A stretch of 64,000 bases of DNA from Tubulanus polymorphus (taxonomy: Eukaryota > Nemertea > Palaeonemertea > Tubulaniformes > Tubulanidae), in NCBI RefSeq assembly GCF_964204645.1, contig NC_134032.1:12580275-12644274 (forward strand), read 5' to 3'. The position numbers and the translations under genes were made by a program. Position 1 is the first letter of the stretch. Each line of letters begins with the position of its first letter. A model generated the notes under the pieces. It was not told the origin of the DNA, did no database searches, and was given only the letters and a program-made list of their open reading frames with translations. Of this stretch, positions 3,001 to 62,105 are shown piece after piece.

Positions 3001-6000
3001 TATCGGTGACGTCATTTATTTCGGTCTAGATGTGTGGATGTTTGATTTTCAAATCATGCAAATATGTGATTGGGGCAAATATATAAACCGCAGGTTCAAA
3101 CACGAACGAACTAACGTTTGCATTCTTGGCGAGTTTGACAAAATTTTACAAAATTAAACCCGTACTGGGGATGGCCATTTTGACTTATGGGAACCTTAGT
3201 TTTTCATATATTTATATCGTAATATTTTTTTTAAACTTTGAATTTTCTCGGTAAACTTTTCCTTTAAATGTCTCCGGAACCTTTTGCTGGAACCGTATTT
3301 TGAAATGGAGCAGGCGAAGAATATGCTATTTTCCACATGTTTGTAGCATAGATGCCTCTATGCCTATCCCCGACCCCTTCTGCGTAGCTGTGTCGGAGGC
3401 TGCAACCTAGATGAAATTGTTGTAAAGTTTGGAAAAGAATATATTCTTGAATCAGGAACCGAGAAATCTTTTTAACTGGCAACTTGAGTGTGACGCCGGA
3501 ATTGCGTGACGCCGTCGCAGACGAATTCTCCACTCAAATGGATGAGTGTGGATCTAGTCATGAATGTTAGTATTTGAAAACATGGACTAGACCTACAATC
3601 ATTCACTGAAGTAGACATGTATTAAAGTGCGGCAGACATTATCGAACCAATCCCTGTTTTTCGATGTTAAGAAAAAAAGACGACGACAACCTTCGCGAAT
3701 ATGGAACGAAATCCTTCCTGTCGGTTTCGGTGCGACGAATCCGGGTTTTTATATCGCGGAATGGCAAGAGTGGGTCGAAAAACCAACAATACGAAATCGA
3801 TACAACGACAAGTTAACAATACAAACAATCTTGTCCCAAATTCGAGAGTAGTCTAACCATGTACATGAGAGAAAATAATGCATACGGTTTTAAACGTTGC
3901 ATAGTAAACCGGTTCAAACGGATGAACCTAGATTTGAGACCCAAATCGAAAAGATACCGCGTGAATTGATCTAAGACTCTCGAAGAATGGTGAAAAGATT
4001 CTAAAGCAGAAATGTTGCGAATGAAAAAGACCGCTCGAAATTGATATTCGGAGACAAATTCACACAAACACCAATTCAGCTCTGAATCTGTTCAGATTTG
4101 GAAAAAAGATTCCGCACGAAAACGATATCAGATCTAAACCCCTCAATCCGCTGATCTTGTGGTGAGATAGGTGTATTTGTTGAGTCCTCTCTGTCCGAAT
4201 TTGAAGTGTAAATCCACGGAAATCCTTCGCCGAAAATTCATCAGCGCTAAGCCCGCAAACTGGTCCCTTTTCGCGGCGTCTGATCACTAACTGCTAGCGT
4301 ATATGGCCGAGCGGTGGGATTGGAAGCCCATTAAATCACCTAGCATTCCTCAACACAGAACAAAACCAACTCATTGAAACCCACAGTTCCGGAAACTTTC
4401 AACGCACTGCGCATGCGTTACCGTATTGTTCCCATTGTGACCGTCCGACAATGCGAGTCGTTAAACTCGCGAAATACGTTTTCAAAAGGCGTCCAACAGG
4501 GCCGGTATAGTTACAATAGGCAAGAGCTATTTTTGAATGAAGTCCTTTTCGAATTTGTGTTCATGCATACAAACTACTACTCTGTATAAATGAAGACAAT
4601 TAATTTTGACGGGACGCGACTGTGGTCTAAAGGTTTGACTATATCTCTACGTAAAAGTTTTGTGGGATTATATTGAATGCTTTGCAATACACCGCCATGA
4701 CAGTTTGCGCACAACACTGAAAGCCAGTAGCTTATCATAGTGCTATTTAAAGAAATTGATTCAAGCGTGGGTTTTTTAATTGAATAGAAATAAATATCAA
4801 ACGCATAGATTTATAAAAAAAGAATCGTGCTCTGAATAGCGAAGAATGATAGAATGCGAACAAGATGTGACCTGTCCCCCGGGAGAATTGTCGGTAGGCC
4901 TAAGGCAATTACTGACAAAAATGTATAGGGAACAAGATTTCGCAGACGTTTTATCGCTTTCTGATTTTATCACTCATTTATTTATCATGTGATGTTCTAT
5001 GCAAAGGTGGCCGTTTTAGTAGAAGGAGGCTTCAGGGTCGTATACCGGGGACCAAAATCCAAGCGCCAGGATATTCCCTGCACGAACATTCAGGCACAAT
5101 ATTCCGCGGTTTGTGGTCGGTGGCCGACCAGATATCAATTCCTAAAGTCCAACAGCCGCTGACTCCAGCAGACGTTTATCATTTTAACTCCCCTGAACAC
5201 CGTCGACGCCTCGCCTAGTAATTCGGACTTCGGAGTAATCATTCTGGTTACTCCAAGTTCGGACGAACTAGTCCCTACGAAATTAGTCCGAGGTATAAGC
5301 GAAGTCCGAGTTAAGCATCGGGAAGATAAGATGGACATTTTGAAAAGAAATATATTTTGGTCTCTGTCCAAGTTGGTCATATCCGAATATAAAGCGTTGT
5401 TTATGGTAGAACCAAAAATATTTTAACTTAGAATATATATATTTTTTTCAAAACGGACAGTTTCAACGTCCTTTTAGTCGAGGGTTTCAGCGCCCATTAA
5501 AATGAGAAAGTTTTCAGCGCCCATTAAAATGAGAAGGTTTTAGCGTCCATTAAAAGAAAAAACCTGAACAATCTAGTTCTACATGTTATCTACATAGAAC
5601 TAAAAACTTACAAAAGACATTTCCTTTTGTAATAAACTTCCAGGTCTCGCGATATTCTGTCGTTGACGATTCAAATATATCTATTGACAAAATAAATCTA
5701 TTGACGAAGATGAAAAAAAAACCCCGATGAATAAAACTAGATATTCGCCCCCTAATTCTTACACCGTGAAATCTAACATTTCTATAGACCGGTTTTCATA
5801 CTGTGTATAAAGAAAAAAGTTGTAACTACGCCACAAGACGATATACGAATATCTATAGTAAAAAAAAAAACTGGATTAGAAAATGCCCGAGGGTTCAACC
5901 GAACTAACGCCGGACCCCCTGGCGCGATTATACCTATCTCTCCCAGATTATTACTAAAGATGAATTCTATATCAAAACCGCCAACCTTCGCGGTAATTGT

Positions 6001-16329: not shown

Positions 16330-17676
16330 CACCAATGTAAATTCCACAGCATGACTGCGATGAGATTTGGAATCTTGAGTTAGTAATACATGTTATGGCA
16401 CACGTAAGCTTAGAAAGATTTTTTTCCAGATATTCAACTTTGCGTAAAAGCTTTAACGGCACGTTTTACTATGAATTTTGATGAATTTGGCAAAGTGAAT
16501 TGGCTCAACTCGGAACTAGCGTCCAGGGCTTTGAGTGAAAGTGGCCTATCGTTAGTCAGATTTAATTCTACATTACTAGAACCATTAATTTCCAAATACT
16601 TCGAACGTAGACCAAAATTAAACCCGCATCGTGGAATCGGGTCAACAGAGAGTCCAAACACCGGAACTACGTCCAGGGTTGTGAGTCAGCGTATGATCCC
16701 TAGTCAAATTTACCTCTACGTTTAGAATCTGTTCATTTTAGAATATCTCAACTCGAATACAAATCGTAACCCAGTTCTGCAGAAATTGGGTCAGGATAGA
16801 TTGAACTTTGGCTAAAATTATCACGTTTTCAAACATCTAACCCTCAGATTAAAATCCGCGTTTATGGAACTAGTTTCCGGATATTTCGCCGTTCGTTAAG
16901 ATCGTTTATTTCCGTTTTTCCTCGAAAATTTCCGACACGTAGAAACGACGCAATAATCGACGCCGTTATTTCCTTCGCGGAAAGACCCACGGTTTGCTCG
17001 GAGAGGCATAAAAGACTTCGACGCACCGGTACTGCGCAGTACACGAGAACGAAATAATTAATTGTCCCATTGGAGGCAACAATGTATTTTAGTTTCGTGG
17101 AAAGCACTCGGTAGCGACTCAGATAAATCAAAAAGATTTACAGTTATGCGTTGATAAACTGGAATAGCAGTGCAAACGGCCGCGTTTTACAAAGAACTGC
17201 GGCCCTCGCGATCGCTTTGTTATAGGTGCTCACACGAGGTCGTTAAGTCCTTGATAATTAGTCATATATCGACTACTAAAGGTCTAAAACGTATAAAACC
17301 GCGACCCAGATTCATAAATCAATAAACATCGTTTTGCTGAATTTTCCGTCGCCGCGTCGAGAATAAGATCGTCACGCAACGTGACTTATCATTCATTTTG
17401 CTAAATCATTATTGCACTCTTTCTGAAAGTCGTTCGGAATGAGATTAAGCAGTTCGTTTTGAGTAACTGGATCAGAATTTTGATGAATCATCGGCGCCAT
17501 TGAAATCGAGAGAGTCGTCGTTAGTAACTTATCATTACAATTTTGCTGAATCGTCATTGTTAACGAGGTCGTATCTAATCATAATTTGCATCGCATCATG
17601 AAATTGGACGATGAAAAGGTCGTCATTAGTAACTACTCAATATTTTGCTGAAGGTTCATCGAGATTGAGATATATA
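16330..17676. other. No gene recognised
   Basis: Short open frames only, with no exon chain or domain. The sequence around 17.2-17.65 kb is rich in the words gtcgt, tcatt and ttttgctgaa, which repeat irregularly every 60-120 bp as an eroded tandem repeat. Confidence 0.45.
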
Positions 17677-17898
17677 TGTAGAGAGAATCCCACAATAATA
17701 ACGAAAAAACAGTCCGAAAATGTAACTTTGAACTCGTTTAGTTTATTCAACGTTTCGACTATATCCTAATAGTCATCTTCAGGAATAGAAGATGACTATG
17801 ATAGTCGAAGATGACTATGATAGTCGAAACGTTGAATAAACTACACTAGCTAGCTCAAAGTAACATTTTTAACTTACTATTGTCGGATTCTCTCTACA
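17677..17898. mobile_element. Palindromic element with hammerhead-like core, copy 1
   Basis: Terminal inverted repeats begin tgtagagagaatcc and extend, with gaps, to the centre. The minus strand of the left arm reads cctgaagatgac, a short stem-loop, then tagtcgaaacgttg. The right arm carries a duplicated gatgactat..atagtcga block. It shares ends (gagagaatcccacaat) with 61825-62092 and loosely with 54448-54617. No coding capacity. Confidence 0.75.
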
Positions 17899-19106
17899 TC
17901 GCTTCAACGCACGGATTATAGTGTTTAATCAATCGTGATGAGATATATATAATCATTAGCTTATCGAAGTTATCGAGTAATTCTAATAATAAAATTTGTC
18001 TTTGATTTTGGAAAATTGGAACAACTTATGATCTAAAAATTAAGTTTACTCACTTCATTGTTTCCTCTTACAACATTTCCCCTAGAATCTTAAATCCAAT
18101 GCAACAACAAGGGCAGATCCAGGATAAGACAATGGGCGGGGGATTCCAAGGTTAAGATTAATCAGCAGTTTAGTGAATGCAAAGCACCACATTCCTTTTC
18201 TAAAATAAACCTCCAAATGCATTTTCCTCTATCTAACCAGTGAAATTGAACATTCTTTAGTGACGTAGGAGTTACTACTAATTTTTTCAGAATCATTTGG
18301 AATAGCAGTGTTATTTAGGAAAATAAATTTTCATCCAGGGGACCCTGAAATCCCCACGGATGCGCCCCTGATCGGCGTATAGGCTGAAGGTGCCTGGTGA
18401 CCGATAGTTTTCAAAATATGCTATACCATAGTAGTACAACGAGTTGGAATGTCGATTTTGAACTGGGTGTAACATAGCCGGTCGGTGAGCTGTGAAATGT
18501 CACCCCTCGAATGATTTTCTGTGAGACGTTAGCAATAACACATAGTAAATGAATAGCAGCAAATAAAATCAAACATAAAATCATTTTACGAAAGCGAATT
18601 TTCAGAGAAAAAGAAACAAGCTATATTTTTTCAGTCTAATATCGTATAGTAGATTGCAGGTTCAAAAACCAGAGAGGGATCGGTCTAAGATAGGAGTTGG
18701 CGATCTCGTATACCATGTTCGGACAATATTTGAAATGTAACCACTATCGAGGATGGAGGTGTTTACGGCACAGGGCGGCCTCAATGATATAATTGAATAT
18801 GAATATAGGACCACCGGGGAATAAGATTTGACCCAGTAATTTAAACTGGGTCACGTACGTAGTGTATTTTTTAGCGTGGATTTTTTTCCACAACGCGCGG
18901 GGCGGTGTCAGATGAAATACGAGGTCATCTTTTGTCAGATCCAAAGCAATTTTATAAGGCACCAATGTATTGATACATGTGATGTGCTTTTCAAGTCACC
19001 ATTCTCATATTCGTGTAAGCTTGGAGTAATACTGCAAGGTGACAATTGGTAATTCGCATGTAAGCGGTTAGGACCAAAAAATTTGACTATATGAAGCTAT
19101 TTAAAC

Positions 19107-24231: not shown

Positions 24232-27200
24232 CTAATATTTAACGGCTTTTCCGCCCTTCCTGGCGTCGGCGTAAGCGTCGATCGTTTCGTTACTTTTCGA
24301 GACGGCGTTTATGATATTTATCCCCTCGGTAACTTTCTCTAACTTGTGGCCTCTTTGTTGTAGAAACGTGATCACATTAGCCGGAATTCCATCTGAAAAT
24401 TTAATAAACCAGAAAAAATAGTGAGGCTACTGCAGCAATTGAGTCAAGTGAAGATCCACCCAGGATACCCCCATCGATAACGTTTGTTCTGTTTTAAAAT
24501 ACTTTTATTTATGTTTTTGTAATTTATAATTGTAAATGCTCTTTTTCCTCCATATACCATGGAAATAGTTGGAGTGTAATAAATATTTGTATATTCAATG
24601 CTGGATTTTTTCAAGAAAGTTCTTGAGAGTCTGCATTTAACAATTCAACAAAATCTCGACGGATTAGAACAAATAGATAAAGAGACATTACCTTCATATT
24701 CGACTATATCTGGGTATAATTGATTGTGAATTCTGGGTTTATCGATGGCTGTTTTTAGACTCTCTCCTCCCAGCATATAGTTCATAGCCACCTCAAATAT
24801 TCCTGCAGTTAGAAAATACACCATTCAAAATAAGCTAAATACGTAGTTGAGCTGTGGAATTCCGTTTAAGAGTCCAGTTTAGAAAGCTACTTCACAATTT
24901 CAACCACATAAGGCATTTTAGGGTACTTTTGTACAACAAATTATTCTAGAATTTTTTACCTGTTAGTATTTTGGTACCGTTACTGCCACCGAGTGCGAGC
25001 CTCGAACCACATTTATGATTCTCGTTATGTATGAGCGTTGGCGTCATCGCTGATAAGGGGCGCTTCCCTCCTTCTATATAATTTGCCTTTGGATTTATTG
25101 AAGAAAACGAAAAATAATCATTTTTTGAAAACCGGAGAAAAATTAATCATTCTGAAATGTGACAATCAAGGATTCTACAAGTGGCAAGTTGGGATCTACA
25201 AGATGTGCCAGTGTGTTGTAAGACATCATCTATTGTGATGATAAAGGACTCTACCAGGTGTCACTAGTGCGCAGTAGGACATCAACTACTGCGGCAATAG
25301 AGGATTCGACTTGGCGAGTGAGGATCCACCAGATGTCGCTAGTGGGCAGTAGGATATCAATTACTGTGACGATTGTGAAGTAAGTTGTATTCTCAGTGAA
25401 ACCATGCAGGTGGTTAGCTTGTCGAAGAGCTCATGAAACAAATACATAATCCGACTAGTACAATGGATAAATTACCTTTGCAGGAGGCATTCCAAACATC
25501 GAATTCTGTCCAGGTATCGAAAAATCTGCCATTTCGTTATTCAACAGGATTCCACTTTTCGTCATGATCTTCGAACCGAACCAGTAATTTACAGTTCTGT
25601 AAAATAACGAACATCGAAATACAATCGCTTAAACAACTTGTCGATGAAATTCGAGACCATCATTTGAAAATACCGCTCGGAACGAACCCCGAGGCCCTCT
25701 AGTGAGAGAATAATGAACACTTACGATGTGACGGACACGAATACTTCGTCGTTATCAATCACCGATATTTGCGATGTTCCCCTGGAAATCGGCGTCTCGT
25801 AAAATTTCACGTCCTTATTCACAGATTGGTCGCTGATTTTTGCACGGAGCTCGTCGGCGGTCTTCTTACTGAAATTATCAAAAAAGAAATCTAATGGGGG
25901 ATTGTGGCTAGCGAGAGGATCCACCAGGTGTCGCTAGTGTCCAGTAGGACATCAACTACTTTGACAATAGATAATTCCACTTGTGGCATGCGAGGATCCA
26001 CCAGGAGTGACTAGTGTGCAGTAGGATATCAACTACTGCGGCAATAGAGGATTCACCAGGTGCGCTATATACAAACCTAATTATGTAGTCAGTTATATTT
26101 TTCATATTTGAATTGAACGCTGGATCCGCGATTTCAGTTCGCAGACCGTATGAAAACTTGAATGACTGAAACCGAATAATAGAAAATAAATATCTGTACC
26201 GATAATCACCGACAATTTTTCCATTTTTAAACTTTATATGACTAGAAACACAACAAAATAATGCGTGAAAATACCTCAATCATCCTGTGATAGTATAGCG
26301 GATCGGTCAGATCAGAGAGCGTTACGTTAAATCCTTCCATGATATTGAACATAGTTAACATCGCTGCCCCGCTACTCGGAGGGGGTAGGGTATAGATTAT
26401 CTTATCTGTAAAATGAAGATTTCACATGTTTATGAATTTCCAACAATCGACAAATTCTTCCAAGCTACAGGGGCAGGCTTTATTGACAGGGGTTTGTATT
26501 GTGACATCAGATGTCATCAGACTGAAATCACTGCTCAGGGAAGAAGTGTGTAAGGGGCAGGAGACTGGCAGAGTCTCGCTATGTATTCAGGTTCAAATTC
26601 CTGTAAACGACGATGTGTCTCCTAGGGGAGGGATTTGTACTGCGACAGAGTCTCATGTCCGACAAACTATTACCGGCCGCTATTCAAAAAAAGCATATTC
26701 TGGTCGAAACAAACGTGCCAGAAGAGAACTCCAGAATCAGTGAAGACCAATCGAAACCAGCTAAACTTAACCGGCTACTTGAAACAGATTACGCTATTCC
26801 GGACAGGCAGAGTCGATTCATTTCGAGGGGATCAGAAAAGAATCCCTGAATCAGTAGAGACCAGGACGATCAGGACCAGCTGATCAGGATCTTTCCCACG
26901 ACTGAAAACTCACCTTGGAATTTAGTCTGAATCGCTTCTCTTTCGACGACTTTATATTTGACGAGATCGTCGGCGGTCATAGCTCCGTTATCGTTCGTGA
27001 CGGCCGAGACGATATCGTCGGCTAGCGGGCCGACGTAGAACGCGTCGACGCCCTCCGTCGCGATTATCGACAACGTACCGGCCAGGTCGTCACGTCGGAT
27101 GAAATCGCCCTCGCGTACGAAACGATTGTTGTCGCGTATGTAATGTTTCGCCAGCGTCGGGTTCGCGGCGACGTCGCTGAATTTCACGTGACGTTCCAGA

Positions 27201-30200
27201 GAATCGGCTGTAAAATTTTCGATAAAATGAATGCTTCGCGGCGATGATTATCGGCGATATGAGGCGGAATTCGAATCTTTTTTCAGCCGAAATTTGAACG
27301 AGGTAGAAGCAACATCGCAGGTGGATCTAGGAACATTGGACGGCCGCAAGAAAAGGGTCCGGAAGAAAAGGCGTTTCTTGGATAAAGCATATTTCTAAAG
27401 ATTAAAGATTTTCTAAAGATTTCGCAAGGACTCACCGATTTCTTTCGTTACTGTGAAACCGTTCCTCGCGATCTCGATAGACGGTTGAACTAGTTCATTC
27501 CAAGTTAGTCTGTTCGACAAGAAAAAGAATTTAACCAATTTTCACAGAATAAGTCGATGCGATGTGCGAACATGTTCTACATTAGTTGGTAAATTTTGTC
27601 CTCAACAGTTGAAAATGAATCAAGGTCCTGATTGATGAACTCTCAAATTTTCACATTTTTTCATAACTTTTAAACTGGCTCTTTTAATGATTTTTCATAT
27701 TTTTTTTCGCAATTGTTTTAAGCAGGCATCCATATTTCACAGTTTTCAAGCCAATCTGACCCAGGAGAGACCATTCCAATAGCATCATGAGAGTCAGGTT
27801 TAGTCGGGTGCAAACTGTGGATTTATAACAAGTTGTTCTATTATTACTCACTTGCCATATTTCTTGTGAGCCACTTCCATACCTCGTAATTCACCCGGTA
27901 CAGCCACTGAGCCACCGCCCTGAAAAAATAACTATTACTTCAAACACCCATGAAAACTTGAGGTTATGAGGTAAGATCCACTTCCACAGTTCCGAGTTAG
28001 ACTTTAGAGAATAGACTAATTCTAATTCTATTTGTAGTTCATCCCTCGCAACTATGGAACGGGATCCGATCTCCGAGTCCCTACAGATCAGTCGGTGGTT
28101 TTGTTTTTTTATCTCTTTTACACTTCAAGCCTTGGTTTCTATTTTCGTTACCAACTAAATGGGTAAAAAATCCTGGTCCCAACTGTACCGATTTAGGGGT
28201 AATCTACTCTACATCTAGAGACTAGACAAAAATTTCCAATTGCCTATTTCTCAAAACTGGAGGAGCTTCAAAAATCTTGCCCAAATCAAAGGAGATTCAA
28301 GCGCCTGTAAAAGCATTTTCCGTTAAGGAGTTCTAAAGGCGTCGTAGGGACCCGAAGTCTACTGGTATAAACGATGGAGTTCTCACTATAGGTATACTGG
28401 TCAACTTACGCTTTCAGCCAGTTTAGGATTCGCGACATATTTCGAAACGTCGACGTTCAATGGAGCCGTCTCCCTCGCGTCGATCGTACGAGTAGCACCA
28501 GTTTTGTGGTCGTGAACCAACATGAAATGACCCCTGAAACGAATGAATTCATTTAGATCGATATATTCATGCCGCATAAAATGTAAGCTAAAAGTGAGTT
28601 TGACTGTAGTTTTTAAGTAAAATAATCATTTCTCGATTCATTTAAATCAAGTTTGATTCAATGAATTATCGGTTTTGAATACTTTTAATCCGTAAAAAGT
28701 GGTTTTTCATTATATCGTCTTCGCTCCACGTGTGATAGTAGCTATTCTACCATTCACTATAGTTTAGACTATAGTATAGACTAAGTAAAATAATCAATTG
28801 TGGATCGTGAGGTTTTGCTGGAGAAATTCCGATTACGTGAATATGATATGAAGAAAGTTACCCTCCGATTCCTGAACTGTGAGCGTTAATCACTCCGATA
28901 CAGAACATGGCCGCTATGGCAGCATCGACGGCGGAGCCTCCTTTTTGTAAAATATTACGACCGGTTTTCGAACATTGCAACACGCTGGTCGATACAGCTC
29001 CGTGCGGGGGCACCTGAAAAACAGAATAATCAGAATTTAGAATGCAGTAGACACAGTCTCTTACTGCAGTAAAGTTGAAACTGATAAAATTCTAGCCCGA
29101 ATTGGCGCCAAATATTGAGTAAGAGTTTGTAAAATACAGTAGACTCTGTCTCTTGCTGCAGTATAGTTGAGACTTATAAAATTCTAGCCTGAGTTGCTGT
29201 CAAATATTGAGTAAGAGTTTGGAAAATACAGTAGACTCTGTATCTTGCTGCAGTAGAGTTGAGACTTATAAAATTCTAACCTGAGTTGCAGTCAAATACT
29301 GACTAAGAGTTTGTGTAAATACAGAAGACTCTGTCTCTTACTGCGGTTAAGTTGAGACTAGTCAAATTCTACCCTGAGTCGGATGGAGACAAATACTGAA
29401 TAAGAGTTAAACTCACCTGAGGAGGTCCTAGATAGATCTGCAGTATCAGCGCCGTCGTGACGCCCAGTGAGAAAACTAAAGCTGAAATCACTATAACTCG
29501 AAGACCTTGACCTTTCTTCACACATCTAAAAATAGGACGTACACAAAAAAATATTCAAATCTGCAAAATTATAATCCAGACCGCTTTTCAAATGTAGGTA
29601 TCATCTTGCAGTCCCATTCCCTACAGACATTCACTTATATAATGAGAATAATAAGAATGGATGTTCACTTTTTGAAAGTTTGCTGGAAAAATTTTCTTGC
29701 AACAAAATCAGTGTCAATCTTCTGTTAATTTGTGTAGGCCTAGTTCATATTCAATTAAAATTGTCCGAGATAAAATATTGAACACGTGAAATGTGGGCAA
29801 TCAGATTTTGAAAGTGTCCTGATAAAAGTGTCTAATATCTGGTTTTTGTAGTTAATTTTCATTTAAAAATATCTCAGATGAAGTACTGAACACATGTGAA
29901 GTGTGGATGATCACAAATGAGTAAAGAATCAGCCAAAAATCTAAGTAAAGATTTACAATTAAGATTATGAATTAATTAATGTAACCTGGCAGTTTCTTCA
30001 TCATTTTGTTGTTCAGCGTTGGAGGGGGATGTCGAACCACTGCTGGCCCCCGGTCCCGTAGCTGATTTTCGAGCCTGTTCTTTTTGTAACGGTGAGGCTT
30101 CATTTGATAAGCTATCGTTGCTGTTAGATTGAAAATCATTACCAATCAAACCGGCTTTATCATCTAAAATTCAAAACGAACAAACTCAGCATTACTGACC

Positions 30201-31612: not shown

Positions 31613-33921
31613 TCAGTGGCCTTCGTGGATCTTCAGATGACTGACCAGCGCCTCCTTCCTCGAGAACTTCCTCTCGCAGATGGAGCACGCGAACGGCTTC
31701 TCGTCGAGGTGCAAACGCATGTGACGTCGACAATGACTCTGTTGACGGAACGCCTTCGGGCACACGGGACACCGAAACGGTTTCTCGTCCGTGTGCGTCA
31801 ACATGTGCGCCTTCGCGTTCTGATTACGTTTGAACAGTTTATTGCACACCTCGCACTGATACATGAACAATGTTCCTTTCGGTTTGTGCAGATTTTGACG
31901 CAGGTGCTCCTGCAGCGTGCTCGCGCGTGAGAATCGTTTGTCGCACACGTCGCATTTGAATTCCTTGTCCATGTGCACGAGCATGTGGCGCCGGACGTGC
32001 GCCATTTGCGTGAACGCGCGGCTGCAGATTTCGCACTGGTACGGACGTTCGCCGGTGTGCGTTTTTCTGTGCTCGGTTAACGTGCTCTGTTTGCGGAAGG
32101 TTTTGTCGCACAGCGCGCACTCGTACGGCCGAGCGTCCGAGTGTGATTTCACGTGGTGTCGCAATACGTTCGACGTTTTGAAATCTTTACCGCAAATCTG
32201 AAAATAAAATACCGTTTATAGAAATACTATAGGTTTAGTTTGGTCCCACGATACCCAAAGCAGGTGGAGTCTACTGCATTATTGTTAATTTCCCGGTAAA
32301 TGAGATGACCGGTATTTCAGGAACTTACTTTGCAGACGTGGGGGCGTGGCTTATCGGTATGAGTGACACGATGATTGTCTAAATCTCGTTGAGTGCGGAA
32401 CGACTTCTCGCAATCGACGCAAGCGTGCGGTCGCGGTTGACTATGACTCGTTTGATGCGTCGTGAACGTGCGTTCGTCCGAGAACTTGCGGTTGCACAAC
32501 GCGCACCGGAACGGCTGGTCGATCTTGTTGCCGCCGTGGAGCTTCATGTGCGCGACCATCTCGGCGTAGTCGGAGAAACCGTCGGCGCACTTTGCGCACG
32601 AGATCGGATTGGAAATGACGTGAGTGTTCATGTGCGCGCGAAGCTGTTCGGTCGAATCGAACGACACGCGACACTTTTTACAAGTGAACGGAACCGACTC
32701 CGTTTCGACGCTATCCGCACCTGCAAAATAAACAAGTTTAAAATCAGTGAAATTTTGGGGAGATTTTTGCCGCGATTTTTGGTTTTAACTTATCTCACTG
32801 AAAACTGGACCCGAATCAGGTTTTAACTTCTGGGAATCGTTGTCCTCATTGAAACCATGAAGTAATCAATAGTAATTAATTTTGAATCCTCAATGAGGAC
32901 AACAATTCAAACTTAGGTACACAGTTCCTGATTGGCTGGCAATTATGTGAACAACCCCTGCTTCATTCTCAATGCTCATTGGTCAATTTTGAGCAAAACC
33001 TGACTATGTAACAGCTCCAGTGCCAACCTAAGAGTATAATCGTAATAGCAATTGGGAGGCGGCCCCATTATTATTGCGGTGGCAGCCAATATGTTAAAGA
33101 GATTCATAAAACAGTACTCAGGTATCAGAGTACCACCTACAGCCCGAGTAGACACTTTCTCCCTCAGCAGGGATTTCAGTCTGACGGAAACTGGGCCAGG
33201 ACTGACGTGTAACCATTTTACATTAAAACTATTATGAGACTATTATGTCCCGAAGCCCGGAGCGTTCAAAGAGTTAAACATGATACCACGGAGGTTTAGG
33301 GCCTTCGTCGAATTGCACAGCTAACCGGAGAAGGTTTCAACTCAAAAAACGAAAATATGCAATTATGGAGTTCGGCAACGTCGTATTCCAAGCATATAGC
33401 CATTAACAAACCTGAAGTAAAAAAGTGCGCGGTTACAGAGAACTGGTAGAGGATATTGAGAGTGATAAAGACACGATACTGATTGAGTACTTAACCAGCT
33501 CGGGAGTTCGTTCCAAACTCCAGTTTCATAAATATATGTGTTAAGAAGATTCAACTGTTGACGCTATAAGCCCACCTGATGTAACTATATCACTATCCGC
33601 GTCCATTAGTACAATTTTTGGAGTTTCACCGTTTGAATCGGACTGCGTCAGGTGACCTTCGGCATCGTCCGTCCTGATAACGACCTCATTCACGGGAACG
33701 TCATCTTTATCATGAATTACCGAACATAGGACTAAAAGATTATAACAAGATTCCGTATCTTCGCTCTTCCCTTTGTCTTCCTCTTCTGTTGTTGTCGGAG
33801 GCGACGCGGGTTTTTTCGTAGTTTTTTTCGAGGCGGTCGCCTGCGATGAACGGGTCATTCGTAAGCCGAGATCTTCAAGCGTTCTCGCGGAGATCTTGTC
33901 GATAGATTTCGTCGATGTCAT
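31613..33921 (-). CDS. C2H2 zinc-finger protein, 11 fingers
   Basis: Coding exons from the 5' end: 33576-33921, 32329-32720, 31613-32197, giving 440 residues in frame. Residues 1-115 are a low-complexity, Ser/Thr/Asp-rich region with a basic patch (KKTTKKPASPP) near 33. No KRAB, BTB, SCAN or ZAD domain is seen. Residues 127 to about 437 hold 11 classical fingers of the form C-x2-C-x12-H-x3/4-H. Finger 5 is split by the second intron between its cysteines (HVCK|ICGKDF). Linkers of the TGERPYQ and DEKPF type join the last fingers. Fingers of this kind usually bind DNA, so a nuclear transcription regulator is likely; the target is unknown. An acceptor (tttcag) at 33947 shows that the first coding exon has 25 nt of upstream sequence and that a 5' exon lies further out. 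I cannot name an orthologue from the sequence. Confidence 0.9.
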
Positions 33922-53711: not shown

Positions 53712-56700
53712 ATGAGTTCGGGACCGAATCAGACGGACGGCAAAAAGGATGACGTCGTGCCTGGAATGGAAAATATTGATAACGGAGGCGGTAAGCGCTG
53801 GAGAATGTTCGCGTTTAAATGCATAATCGCACTAATTATCGAAATAAAACGTTTTATGTTTTCGCTTTTTGTCAGGTATGCTGGCCGCTACCAGTTTGTT
53901 ACAGCAACGGGCGAACGAGATTCGAGCTAAAAGGGTCAACTGGCAGTCTTACCTACAGTGAGTAGATTTATTTGAGCGTTACAAAAATGTGGTGTTGTTC
54001 AAATAAATTTGATCGCCTGGCCCACAACAGGTGCTAAAATAATTGCACCCCTCTCTTCGACTCGATTCAGTTACTTGCTTTGCTTGTACAGAATTAATGT
54101 AGCCTTCCCAGCTGACTACCTTAAACAGTTAAGCTCACTGAAGTAGTTATCATAGCTGGGATGATCGATATATTGATGACTTAAATTCAAATGACAACTG
54201 GCCTATTACTTAGTTTTACTGCTGTAAGATTAAGATATTTTTCGTTGTGTTTCTTGGATTTTTCAATCCAATCATTTCTATATATTTCAGGGGTCAGATG
54301 ATCACTCAAGAGGATTTTAATTTCATCACGCAATTCGATAATTCTACGGCCGAGGGCAGAGTTCAGTTGTTGAGGGAAAAATCAAACCAGGTAAAAACTG
54401 TTCGACTCAGCGAGACGAGAAGATACACAAAATCCGTGTAAGATGATAACGAGAGAAATCCCACAATAACGAAGCCAAAACGAGAAACTTGAATAGAAGA
54501 CTATTCAGTACGTCTGATGATTGCTAATAGTCTTTAGCCGAAACGTTGCGCAAATATATATACTCCTCTATTCAAATTTCTCGTTTTAGCTGAATTTATT
54601 GTGGGATTTCTCTCGTTGTTTGACTCAGAATGCTTTCTTTTTCTAATATTGATGAGTTAACTCTTGATTAACCCTAACCCTTACAATTAGGTTGAGATTT
54701 TCATGTTAAGAAAAAGGAGCAAATTGACGATTAAAATTCTTGTGTTTACGTTTATCAATTTTTTTTCAGTGCGCAAAGACGTTTTTGAATTTGATGGGAC
54801 ACATTTCCAAAGATCAAACTGTACAATACATTCTCACTATGATCGATGATATGTTACAGGTAAAATAATCTTTATCAATCAAAAGTAAAGAAATTAAAAT
54901 TTGGTCGTTAAAATTCTTGTCATTAAGATTTGATCAACACAAATATTAAAATTAATTCCTCAATTTATTGATCATATTTCTTTCAAAAGTAAACCAAGAA
55001 AAATAAACGAAAAATTGAAATCTTTTAATTTTTTTTGTCAAAATTGTTAAAATTAGCGAAATGGAGAAATTTGATTATACAGAAATAATGCTCACTAAAA
55101 ATAGATTAAATTTGATCCAAAAACTATTAGATTTATCACCAAAAAAAATCGAATTTGTTGATATTTTGATGTTGCAGGAGGATAAATCACGTGTTGAAAT
55201 ATTCCGCGAATACACGAAGAAGCGAAATCGCGATTCCGTCTGGGGTCCGTTTCTGAACATGTTAAATCGGCCGGATGGGTTCATTGTCAATCAGGTAAAA
55301 AATTGTATTCATGAAAAATAAATTTGAGTGATGTCACTACATGGTCCAGTCAAATACGCTTTGTTCTTATCAGTTCAATCTGGATTTTGATGTAATCCAG
55401 ACATTTTATGGTCCGACTTTATATTATATTAATGTGTGTAAAATATGATGTTTAATCCATGAATCGGTTAAAGTTCGTCCCAAATTGTAGAAAGAAAGTA
55501 AGAAAAAGTTGAAAATTTGTGGAAATTTTTTTTTTGTTAGACCGGTCGAATAATCGCGAAGATCGCGTGTTGGGGCAAAGATCCGATGGAAGGATCGGAT
55601 TTGATTTATTACCTGACGTGGTTGAAGGATCAGATGCGTATTCCGAACAATGAATATTTACAAACGGTCGCCAGATGTTTACAGATGATGTTACGAATCG
55701 ACGTGTATCGACAAGCTTTTATAGACGTTGATGCTATTACTACGTAAGTTCGAGTGGAAATTTTAGAAATTTAAATGTCTTGAATTTCTTGATTAGTTTA
55801 AGAAATTCAAGAAACATCCGAGCCTAGTGGATCCTCACTTGCCACAAGTTGAATCCTCTATTACCACAGTCGTTGATGTCCTACTGCACACTAGCACACT
55901 TGAAATTCAAGAAAACATCCAAGCCTAGTGGATCCTCACTTGCCACAAGTAGAATCCTCTATTGCCACAGTAGTTGATGTCCTACTCCACACTAGCACAC
56001 CTGGTGGATCCTCACTTGCCACAAGTGGAATCCTCTATTGCTGCAGTAGTTGTTGTTCTACTACGCACTAGCACACCTGGTGGATCCTCACTTGCCACAA
56101 GTAGAATCCTATTACGACAGTCGTTGATGTCCTACTGCACACTAGCACACTTGAAATTCAAGAAAACATCCAAGCCTAGTGGATCCTCACTTGCCACAAG
56201 TAGAATCCTCTATTGCCACAGTAGTTGATGTCCTACTCCACACTAGCACACCTGGTGGATCCTCACTTGCCACAAGTGGAATCCTCTATTGCTGCAGTAG
56301 TTGTTGTTCTACTACGCACTAGCACACCTGGTGGATCCTCACTTGCCACAAGTAGAATCCTATTACCACAGTTGTTGATGTCCTACTGCACACTAGCGCA
56401 CCTGGTGGATCCTCACTTGCCACATTAGTTGTCATGATTTTCATTCGTATTGTTTTTCAGACTGATTGCAGTACTCGGTGATAAAGTCGGATTTCAAATT
56501 CAATATCAACTCATCTTCTGTTTATGGTGTTTAACTTTCAATCCTAAACTAACCGACAAACTGTCAGAGTAAGTGGCTTGAATCGGAAACCTGGTTACTT
56601 GGATGGATTGAATTGTTTTTCAATTATCATTTTTTTACTCTTTTCAGATATAATATCATCCCGATTTTGGCCGACATTTTGACGGAATCGATCAAAGAAA

Positions 56701-61023: not shown

Positions 61024-61552
61024 ACCCCAGTGAAGTTCATTACTTGTTCCTTATTCCTTATTCGATAACTTATTGAGAATTCATCTCCCAATAAGGAACA
61101 AGGAACAAGTAACTGTTACTTGTTCCTTATTCAGATTATCTCGTCTTAACTTCATCCCAATAAGGAACAAGTAACTTATTCCTTATTCCATTACTTATTG
61201 ATAATTCATCTAATAAGGAACAAGTAACATGTTCCTTGTTCCTTATTCAGATTTTCTGGTCTTTACTTATTGATAATTCATCTAATAAGGAACAAGTAAC
61301 TTGTTTCTTATCCCTTATTCCATTACTTATTGAGAATTCATCTCCCAATAAGGAACAAGTAACATGTTACTTGTTCCTTGTTCCTTATTCAGATTTTCGT
61401 CTTTACCGGTTCAATTTTCGTTACTTATTGAGAATTCATCGCCCAATAAGGAACAAGGAACAAGTTAGGCCTACTTGTTCCTTATTGGGCGATGAATTCC
61501 GAATAAGTAATGAAATAAGGAATAAGGAACAAGTAATGAACTTCACTGGGGT
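61024..61552. mobile_element. Non-autonomous DNA transposon with TIRs and 9-bp target duplication
   Basis: 529 bp. Both ends read accccagtgaagttcattac followed by ttgttccttattcctt (36 bp perfect, continuing imperfectly to about 70 bp). The 9-bp duplication ccgatatcc flanks it exactly (61015-61023 and 61553-61561). The interior is built from repeated caataaggaacaagtaac / gttacttgttccttattc blocks that fold on themselves. The 9-bp duplication would fit Mutator-like (MULE) or Merlin-type insertion; the superfamily is not decided. The open frame 61236-61601 is repeat-derived. Confidence 0.92.
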
Positions 61553-61561
61553 CCGATATCC

Positions 61562-61811
61562 CTCCATCGTTGAGATCGGTGCAAGAGCGGAGGCGGGCTA
61601 AGTGGCCCGGGCCCCCTACTTTTTCGGCATAACAATTGTTCATTACCTGGCTTAAGAAAGTCACACATGCAGAGGCCATCTGTGTTATAGAATCGAAATA
61701 TGATCAATTTTTCGACACTCGCAGCCATGTACAAGTATATACGTACTATATACACCAATAAATCCAGGATACTTTGGCCCCCCTATTCTATATTTGGGTG
61801 CCACCCATAAG
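61562..61811. other. No gene recognised
   Basis: Short spacer between two inverted-repeat elements. The aggcgggctaagtggcccgg word is GC-rich, but no structure is clear. Confidence 0.4.
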
Positions 61812-61824
61812 ATGGTTCTTCAAT

Positions 61825-62092
61825 CACGATAGGTAGAACACAATATCCGTGTTGATGAGGAGAGAATCCCACAATGATAATAAAAAGTCCGAAAATGAAA
61901 CTTCGAGATAGTAGTTTATTTCAACGTTTCGACTATATCCTAATAGTCATCTTCAGGAATAATATTATTCCTGATTCCTATACATCTTATTCCTGAAGAT
62001 GACTATTAGGATATAGTCGAAACGTTGAAATAAACTACTATCTCGAAGTTTCATTTTCGGACTTTTTATTATCATTGTGGGATTCTCTCCTC
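61825..62092. mobile_element. Long hairpin element with hammerhead-like core, copy 4
   Basis: The 13-bp duplication atggttcttcaat lies at 61812-61824 and 62093-62105. Inside, a 30-nt left extra is followed by a near-perfect inverted repeat of about 105-bp arms (gaggagagaatcccacaatg outwards). The right arm carries ctgaaga (61993-61999), a stem gacta/tagtc with an 8-nt loop, then gaaac (62019-62023). Left-arm sequence is its complement. No open frame. Confidence 0.9.
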
Positions 62093-62105
62093 ATGGTTCT
62101 TCAAT

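What the first reader, a model, noticed from the sequence alone, without database searches (positions are those of the whole stretch)
61825..62092. Hairpin element with a hammerhead-like core and a 13-bp target duplication
Seen: exact 13-bp direct repeats (atggttcttcaat) flank a 268-bp insert made mostly of a near-perfect palindrome. One arm reads CTGAAGA, 5-bp stem and loop, GAAAC, which is the order of the conserved core of a hammerhead ribozyme (CUGANGA, helix II, GAAA). Known: Penelope-like retroelements have been reported to carry degenerate hammerhead motifs and to make target duplications of variable length. Inference: this may be a non-autonomous Penelope-like derivative in an inverted arrangement. 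A helix III and cleavage site (UH) are not evident, so activity is doubtful.
Basis: partly seen in the sequence, partly recalled or inferred. Interest (0 to 1): 0.68.

Follow-up and report, generated by a model that had tools for sequence, protein, structure and literature searches.

The report
Hairpin insertions made by Penelope retroelements
The palindrome is a tiny, dead-end copy of a jumping gene of the Penelope-like family in an insect genome, and the many similar copies suggest that the element copies its RNA from both ends of a cut in the DNA, so that two half-copies meet head to head.

Summary
In detail: a 268-bp insert (61825-62092) between exact 13-bp direct repeats, made of two nearly complementary 111-nt arms. 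Each arm carries a hammerhead-like core. The Penelope-like assignment is also right, and can be made specific. The same insect-type genome (268 Mb) holds a tandem Penelope-like element with an open 833-codon frame (RT + GIY-YIG). Its pseudo-LTR and first ORF codons are the hairpin's arms. The core motif occurs about 2,260 times. The hairpin is not a self-propagating unit: 27 hairpins compared have 27 different centres, so each is an independent insertion. In 38 of 38 sampled inserts with exact duplications (9-15 bp), one end stops at RNA position +107 (A) and the other at +144 (B), never A/A or B/B. Arm tips pile up on a TCA initiator with a TATA box starting at -31. Best reading: both cut target strands prime reverse transcription, one at A and one at B; both cDNAs run off the RNA's 5' end and are joined with short filler. 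The hammerhead fold has covariation support, but no Rfam hammerhead model matches and activity is untested. Inverted pLTRs, tails and palindromic junctions are already described; the strict A+B rule and the run-off origin appear not to be.

The parts
61812..61824 (.). left copy of the 13-bp target-site duplication ATGGTTCTTCAAT
61825..61856 (-). 'tail' of the B end (first ORF codons between sites A and B; 37 nt in most copies, 32 here because of a 5-nt deletion)
61857..61963 (-). left arm: antisense copy of the pseudo-LTR/ORF start from site A (+107) to the RNA 5' end (+1)
61926..61956 (-). hammerhead core CUGAAGA-helix II-GAAAC in the left arm; predicted GUU cleavage triplet at 61923-61925
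   Evidence: cleavage site inferred
61964..61986 (.). 23-nt filler at the junction of the two arms; different in every copy and partly templated by the element
61987..62092 (+). right arm: pseudo-LTR/ORF start from +2 to site A (+107, ...TCTCCTC)
61993..62023 (+). hammerhead core CUGAAGA-helix II-GAAAC in the right arm; predicted cleavage 62026^62027 after GUU
   Evidence: cleavage site inferred
62093..62105 (.). right copy of the 13-bp target-site duplication
17666..17950 (.). second, older hairpin insert of the same family: insert 17678-17938, 12-bp duplication TGAGATATATAT; left end A, right end B
54399..54628 (.). third hairpin insert, of the second Penelope family (fam2): insert 54411-54616, duplication TGTTCGACTCAG/TGTTTGACTCAG (1 mismatch, read by eye); left end B, right end A

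Best explanation
The hairpin is a minimal, dead-end insertion of an autonomous Penelope-like retroelement (RT + GIY-YIG). SHOWN by sequence: arm identity with that element; the target duplication; one end at site A and the other at site B; arm tips at a TATA/initiator; a different filler in every copy. INFERRED: the element's protein makes staggered cuts in both target strands, about 13 bp apart. Each 3' end primes reverse transcription inside the element RNA, one at A (+107) and the other at B (+144), on either side of a small stem-loop at the start of the ORF. If the RNA begins at its own promoter, both cDNAs reach its 5' end after 107 and 144 nt. Their two free ends are then joined by end joining or template switching with 3-23 nt of filler. 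The result is a head-to-head palindrome with a 37-nt tail on one side. If the RNA is a read-through from a tandem copy, one or both cDNAs continue upstream and longer, head-to-head-flanked copies result. The hammerhead is copied along as part of the 5' leader. In a hairpin transcript it is locked in duplex and presumably inactive.
For: Element identity: tandem units of about 2.86 kb at C2:15.73 Mb have an 833-codon open frame with RVT_1 (6e-10) and GIY-YIG (1e-5); 11 full-length or nearly full-length matches (99-100% identical) read without a stop, by count from the table (rows covering at least residues 5-833, no stop inside; 10 such rows if only those are taken, 11 with the 52-833 row). Independent events: 27 hairpins compared, 27 different centres. 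Two different ends: 38 of 38 two-ended inserts with exact 9-15 bp duplications are A+B; 0.5^38 is about 4e-12 if ends were drawn at random. Run-off: 38 of 82 arm tips lie within -3..+6, with a TATA box starting at -31; the same arms could end anywhere over 2.8 kb. An insert of 145 nt runs from CATTATT to B with an 11-bp duplication and no second arm (L078). Generality: two other Penelope families (68% and 59% aa identity) make hairpins with the same layout. Orientation: the head-to-head core pattern (spacer 5-17 nt) occurs at 67 places, the opposite arrangement at 0. Biochemistry: the lizard PAc protein cleaves and extends both strands and initiates internally at two sites that bound the 'tail' (PMC11167929).
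Against: No RNA data: the 5' end of the transcript is inferred from TATA/initiator and arm tips, and a strong RT stop at that place would look the same. The sample was drawn by an exact 39-nt motif from parts of three contigs, so old copies and arms ending downstream of +45 are under-represented. Rare source alleles tend to be shared by both arms of a copy, which fits one RNA or one source locus but would also fit copying of one arm from the other. One family-3 hairpin (L120) has an end at neither A nor B. In vitro, PAc showed no difference in start site between strands, so the strict A+B rule was not seen there.
Confidence: 0.8

Rival explanations
1. Self-priming: one strand is copied first, its end folds back on a short palindrome, and the second arm is copied from the first (the explanation offered for head-to-head Penelope copies in bdelloid rotifers, on an antisense template).
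For: Head-to-head arrangement and palindromes at junctions (PMC3846280). This window's own centre has a perfect 22-nt palindrome TCAGGAATAAT/ATTATTCCTGA. Rare alleles are often shared by both arms.
Against: Copying one arm from the other should give two arms with the same outer end, yet ends are always A+B in the sample. Most junctions contain 3-23 nt of filler rather than a palindrome. The two arms of one copy often differ in inner extent by tens to thousands of nt.
Confidence: 0.12
2. A MITE-like or foldback element that moves as a unit, cut and pasted by a DNA transposase that recognises the inverted ends.
For: Short palindromic body, flanking duplications, many copies.
Against: All compared centres differ. 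The duplication is of variable length, 9-15 bp. The outer ends are not inverted repeats of each other (A versus B). The arms are pseudo-LTR/ORF sequence of a retroelement. No transposase was seen (no dedicated search was made).
Confidence: 0.03
3. A retrozyme-like non-autonomous retroelement that spreads through a circular RNA made by hammerhead self-cleavage.
For: A hammerhead-like core is conserved with covarying helices I and II.
Against: Arm tips do not pile up at the predicted cleavage site (+41/+42): only 2 of 82 tips lie at +40..+46, against 38 within -3..+6. There is no tandem array of hammerhead monomers, and the arrangement is head-to-head.
Confidence: 0.03
4. The hairpin is a functional small-RNA precursor (miRNA-like or hpRNA).
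For: Very stable hairpin; Rfam microRNA models MIR6217 and MIR7994 match below their gathering scores.
Against: The scores are far under the cut-offs and hit both strands, as any long perfect hairpin does. The structure follows from the insertion mechanism and is repeated at many unrelated places.
Confidence: 0.05

Closest known systems
Penelope-like elements with inverted pLTRs in Adineta vaga (PMC3846280)
   Same: Head-to-head pLTRs, 31-bp tail on one of the inverted pLTRs, 8-10 bp duplications, palindromic junctions, pLTR reaching into the first ORF codons
   Different: There a few long copies and a self-priming interpretation; here an abundant minimal hairpin class, 37-nt tail, mode 13-bp duplication, strict A+B ends, arm tips at a TATA/initiator
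PAc (Poseidon, Anolis carolinensis) in vitro system (PMC11167929)
   Same: Internal RT initiation at two sites bounding the tail near an AC-rich stem-loop at the ORF start; both target strands cut and extended; hammerhead overlapping the pLTR-ORF junction
   Different: In vitro no strand difference in start site was seen; here each genomic insert uses one site per end. In PAc the ORF begins in stem II; here that ATG frame meets TAG after five codons
Minimal hammerhead ribozymes of Penelope-like elements (reviewed in PMC6155905)
   Same: CUGANGA / helix II / GAAAC core, no real helix III, located in the pLTR
   Different: An extra U between CUGANGA and helix II in all families here; the proposed transcript starts only 7 nt before the core; no Rfam hammerhead model matches
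LINE-1 twin priming (own knowledge, not tested)
   Same: Two cDNAs primed from the two sides of one target break give an inversion
   Different: Here two fixed internal sites, head-to-head products and no poly(A)

Membership tests
Penelope-like element (endonuclease-containing) | Single ORF with RT and GIY-YIG in the autonomous partner | tested here: met
   833-codon frame, RVT_1 6e-10, GIY-YIG 1e-5
Penelope-like element (endonuclease-containing) | Tandem or partial-tandem units forming pLTRs | tested here: met
   L061: successive same-strand units of about 2.86 kb, one of them truncated, plus an inverted arm
Penelope-like element (endonuclease-containing) | Optional 30-40 bp tail at one end and an inverted pLTR | tested here: met
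   37-nt A-B interval at one end of each two-ended insert
Penelope-like element (endonuclease-containing) | Target duplication of variable length | tested here: met
   9-15 bp, mode 13; mismatched-flank control at most 8
Penelope-like element (endonuclease-containing) | The hairpin itself encodes RT/EN | tested here: not met
   268-bp non-autonomous derivative; arms stop at A/B. The claim is therefore 'non-autonomous copy of', not 'complete member'
Hammerhead ribozyme (Penelope type) | Conserved core CUGANGA...GAAA with NUH cleavage triplet | tested here: met
   Invariant in three families, GUU follows GAAAC
Hammerhead ribozyme (Penelope type) | Helices I and II supported by covariation | tested here: met
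   90% cells paired, covariation 0.377 vs 0.148 +/- 0.041 shuffled (0/500), slid controls at most 0.21; only 8 related sequences and helix I only 3 bp in the test
Hammerhead ribozyme (Penelope type) | Match to an Rfam hammerhead model | tested here: not met
   No hammerhead hit even at E = 10
Hammerhead ribozyme (Penelope type) | Self-cleavage | not testable with these tools
   needs in vitro transcription
MITE / foldback DNA transposon | Copies share one body, fixed-length duplication, symmetric terminal inverted repeats | tested here: not met
   27 different centres; duplication 9-15 bp; ends A versus B
Retrozyme | Monomers bounded by hammerhead cleavage sites / circular RNA | tested here: not met
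   No pile-up of ends at the cleavage site; RNA not tested

The most novel reading that the evidence does not exclude
Penelope insertion is an obligate two-site, two-strand reaction. One RNP always starts one cDNA at site A on one target strand and the other at site B on the opposite strand. Because both sites lie within about 150 nt of the RNA's 5' end, an ordinary mRNA can only give a dead-end hairpin. Full-length copies need read-through RNA from a tandem array, which would explain why these elements live as tandems.
Probability: 0.55. Interest if true: 0.72.

Novelty: new member of a known kind. Interest (0 to 1): 0.52.

Why it matters
How Penelope-like elements insert is still open: the one in vitro study I could read calls its system the first active one, and the origin of inverted pLTRs, tails and tandems is unsettled. 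This genome offers thousands of motif copies, many of them young insertions, that record both ends and the arm tips. It gives a strict rule (one end A, one end B) and a run-off point at a promoter. Both are hard to reconcile with self-priming and make a dual-primed model testable by counting and by a simple in vitro assay. It also explains why so many short palindromes with a hammerhead core litter this genome.

Tried and rejected
Rfam scan for hammerheads on the region, the whole window and one arm alone: no hit; microRNA hits judged to be hairpin artefacts.

Test of whether the two arms come from different RNAs: the family is too uniform. No site passes 8% minor allele, and at rarer sites alleles are mostly shared by both arms; several apparent discordances came from arms that do not cover the site. 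Inconclusive.

PDB sequence search with the ORF: no match.

The minimum-free-energy fold of the single family-1 hammerhead leader shows helix II and no helix I; families 2 and 3 also show a short closing helix.

Full report
OBSERVATION. The window carries the direct repeat ATGGTTCTTCAAT at 61812-61824 and 62093-62105, and between them a 268-bp insert whose arms 61855-61965 and 61984-62094 are 99% complementary over 111 nt. The single strand folds at -184 kcal/mol, z = -30 against dinucleotide shuffles. The core CTGAAGATGACTATTAGGATATAGTCGAAAC stands in both arms.

THE GENOME. The window lies in a 268-Mb assembly of 77 contigs. A mir-279 match at 3527-3617 points to an arthropod, probably an insect; the species was not identified. 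The search returned 40 best places, the window's own copy among them; the others match the insert at about 89-93% over nearly its whole length. The 39-nt core with at most 3 mismatches occurs about 2,260 times, against 0 for the reversed control.

THE AUTONOMOUS PARTNER. At C2:15.726-15.735 Mb successive same-strand units of about 2.86 kb stand next to an inverted arm. One has an open frame of 833 codons with a reverse transcriptase domain and a GIY-YIG domain. About ten full-length or nearly full-length matches, 99-100% identical, read without a stop in this genome. The arms of the hairpin are this element's pseudo-LTR end and its first codons. It is therefore a Penelope-like element, and the hairpin a non-autonomous copy of it.

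COORDINATES. I number the element from the A of CTC-A-TTATTCCTGAAGA (+1); position 0 is the base before it. Site A is +107 (...TCTCCTC|ATC) and site B is +144 (...TATCGTG|ATC). A TATATATAT box begins at -31. In the second family TATAAATA and TCAGT stand in the matching places (read). All three families have exactly 7 nt from the +1 A up to the hammerhead core.

INDEPENDENT INSERTIONS. Among the hairpins closest to the window, every centre is different. In 27 compared in detail, both arms stop between -1 and +5 and are joined by 3-23 nt of filler. Fillers of 8 nt or more match the element better than shuffled fillers do: mean longest match 8.0 versus 6.2, and never above 6.95 in 500 shuffles. 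So fillers are partly templated, as in end joining with template switching. A unit that moves as a whole would have a common centre, and this does not.

ENDS AND DUPLICATIONS. To avoid choosing by structure I took distinct inserts carrying the exact core on three contigs. Of 42 candidate pairs of outer ends, 38 are flanked by exact repeats of 9-15 bp, mode 13; flanks paired between different loci gave at most 8 bp. All 38 have one end at A and the other at B; none is A/A or B/B. One of them (L041) looks longer by BLAST, but its duplication puts the end at A. Three more A+B inserts (L064, L068, L092) have shorter exact repeats that extend with a mismatch, by eye. The two cases that the classification lists as A/A are a composite without a clean duplication (L103) and two arms that do not face outward as one insert (L044). 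About twenty further places showed only one recognisable end in the stretch fetched. The longer arm may be the A arm or the B arm.

ARM TIPS. Of 82 arms in 41 inserts, 38 tips lie within -3..+6, 20 are spread over +7..+105 and 24 lie upstream over 2.7 kb. Only 2 tips fall at +40..+46, around the predicted hammerhead cut. One insert has no second arm: it runs from CATTATT to B, 145 nt, with an 11-bp duplication (L078, with an identical second place L079). The simplest reading is that reverse transcription ran off the 5' end of an RNA that starts at the TCA initiator and had not been cut by its hammerhead.

OTHER FAMILIES. Elements 68% and 59% identical in protein have the same leader. In ten of their inverted pairs, eight have A at one end and B at the other with a duplication (one of these, L116, read by eye), one is unclear (L119), and one (L120) ends elsewhere. 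The head-to-head core pattern with a 5-17-nt spacer is found at 67 places, the opposite arrangement nowhere. The 64-kb window holds two further hairpins, at 17.7 kb and 54.5 kb.

HAMMERHEAD. Aligning eight distinct leaders, helices I (3 bp) and II (6 bp) are paired in 90% of cells. Five of nine pairs change on both sides, and the covariation score is 0.377 against 0.148 +/- 0.041 in shuffles; slid versions reach at most 0.21. GUU follows GAAAC in all. An extra U separates CUGANGA from helix II. Rfam's hammerhead models do not match, as may be expected for Penelope hammerheads without helix III (PMC6155905). Whether it cleaves is unknown. In PAc cleavage needed protein and was not needed for insertion (PMC11167929).

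MECHANISM. PAc protein cuts and extends both target strands and starts inside its RNA at two sites that bound the 'tail' (PMC11167929). If one target strand primes at A and the other at B, and both cDNAs run to the RNA 5' end, the product after joining is this hairpin, tail on one side and direct duplication outside. With read-through RNA the cDNAs extend further and give the longer copies seen. Self-priming, proposed for rotifer copies (PMC3846280), does not predict different outer ends. Steps not shown here: the RNA 5' end, the number of RNA templates, the joining enzyme, and the coordination of A and B.

LIMITS. No RNA data; one genome; sampling by an exact motif; allele sharing between arms is inconclusive. 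Literature was limited to open-access papers, so earlier statements of the A+B rule may exist in papers that I could not read; the 2014 hammerhead paper is not held.

VERDICT. A real, well-explained member of a known kind; ordinary as an element, of real value as a record of an unsettled insertion mechanism.

Noticed in passing
window 17666-17950: Second, older hairpin insert of the same Penelope family, with a 12-bp duplication and a duplicated 19-nt piece at its centre.
   Followed up: yes
window 54399-54628: Third hairpin insert, from a different Penelope family (fam2), with an imperfect 12-bp duplication.
   Followed up: partly
window 3527-3617 (-): mir-279 family microRNA above the Rfam gathering score.
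   Followed up: no
window 31613-32784 (-): Open frames that read as an array of C2H2 zinc fingers (by eye); the frame at 26870-27247 (-) looks like a gamma-glutamyltransferase exon (by eye).
   Followed up: no
window 61164-61601 (+): Low-complexity repeat (gaataaggaacaagtaatg-like units; open frame repeating 'NKEQVTC') just upstream of the hairpin.
   Followed up: no
L078 and L079: Identical 145-nt inserts with identical flanks at two places on one contig: probably a segmental duplication; the clearest single run-off copy.
   Followed up: partly
L116: Hairpin of family 2 inserted inside a family-1 element, close to its hammerhead core.
   Followed up: no
L120: Family-3 hairpin with a 12-bp duplication whose right end is at neither A nor B: an exception to the end rule.
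   Followed up: partly
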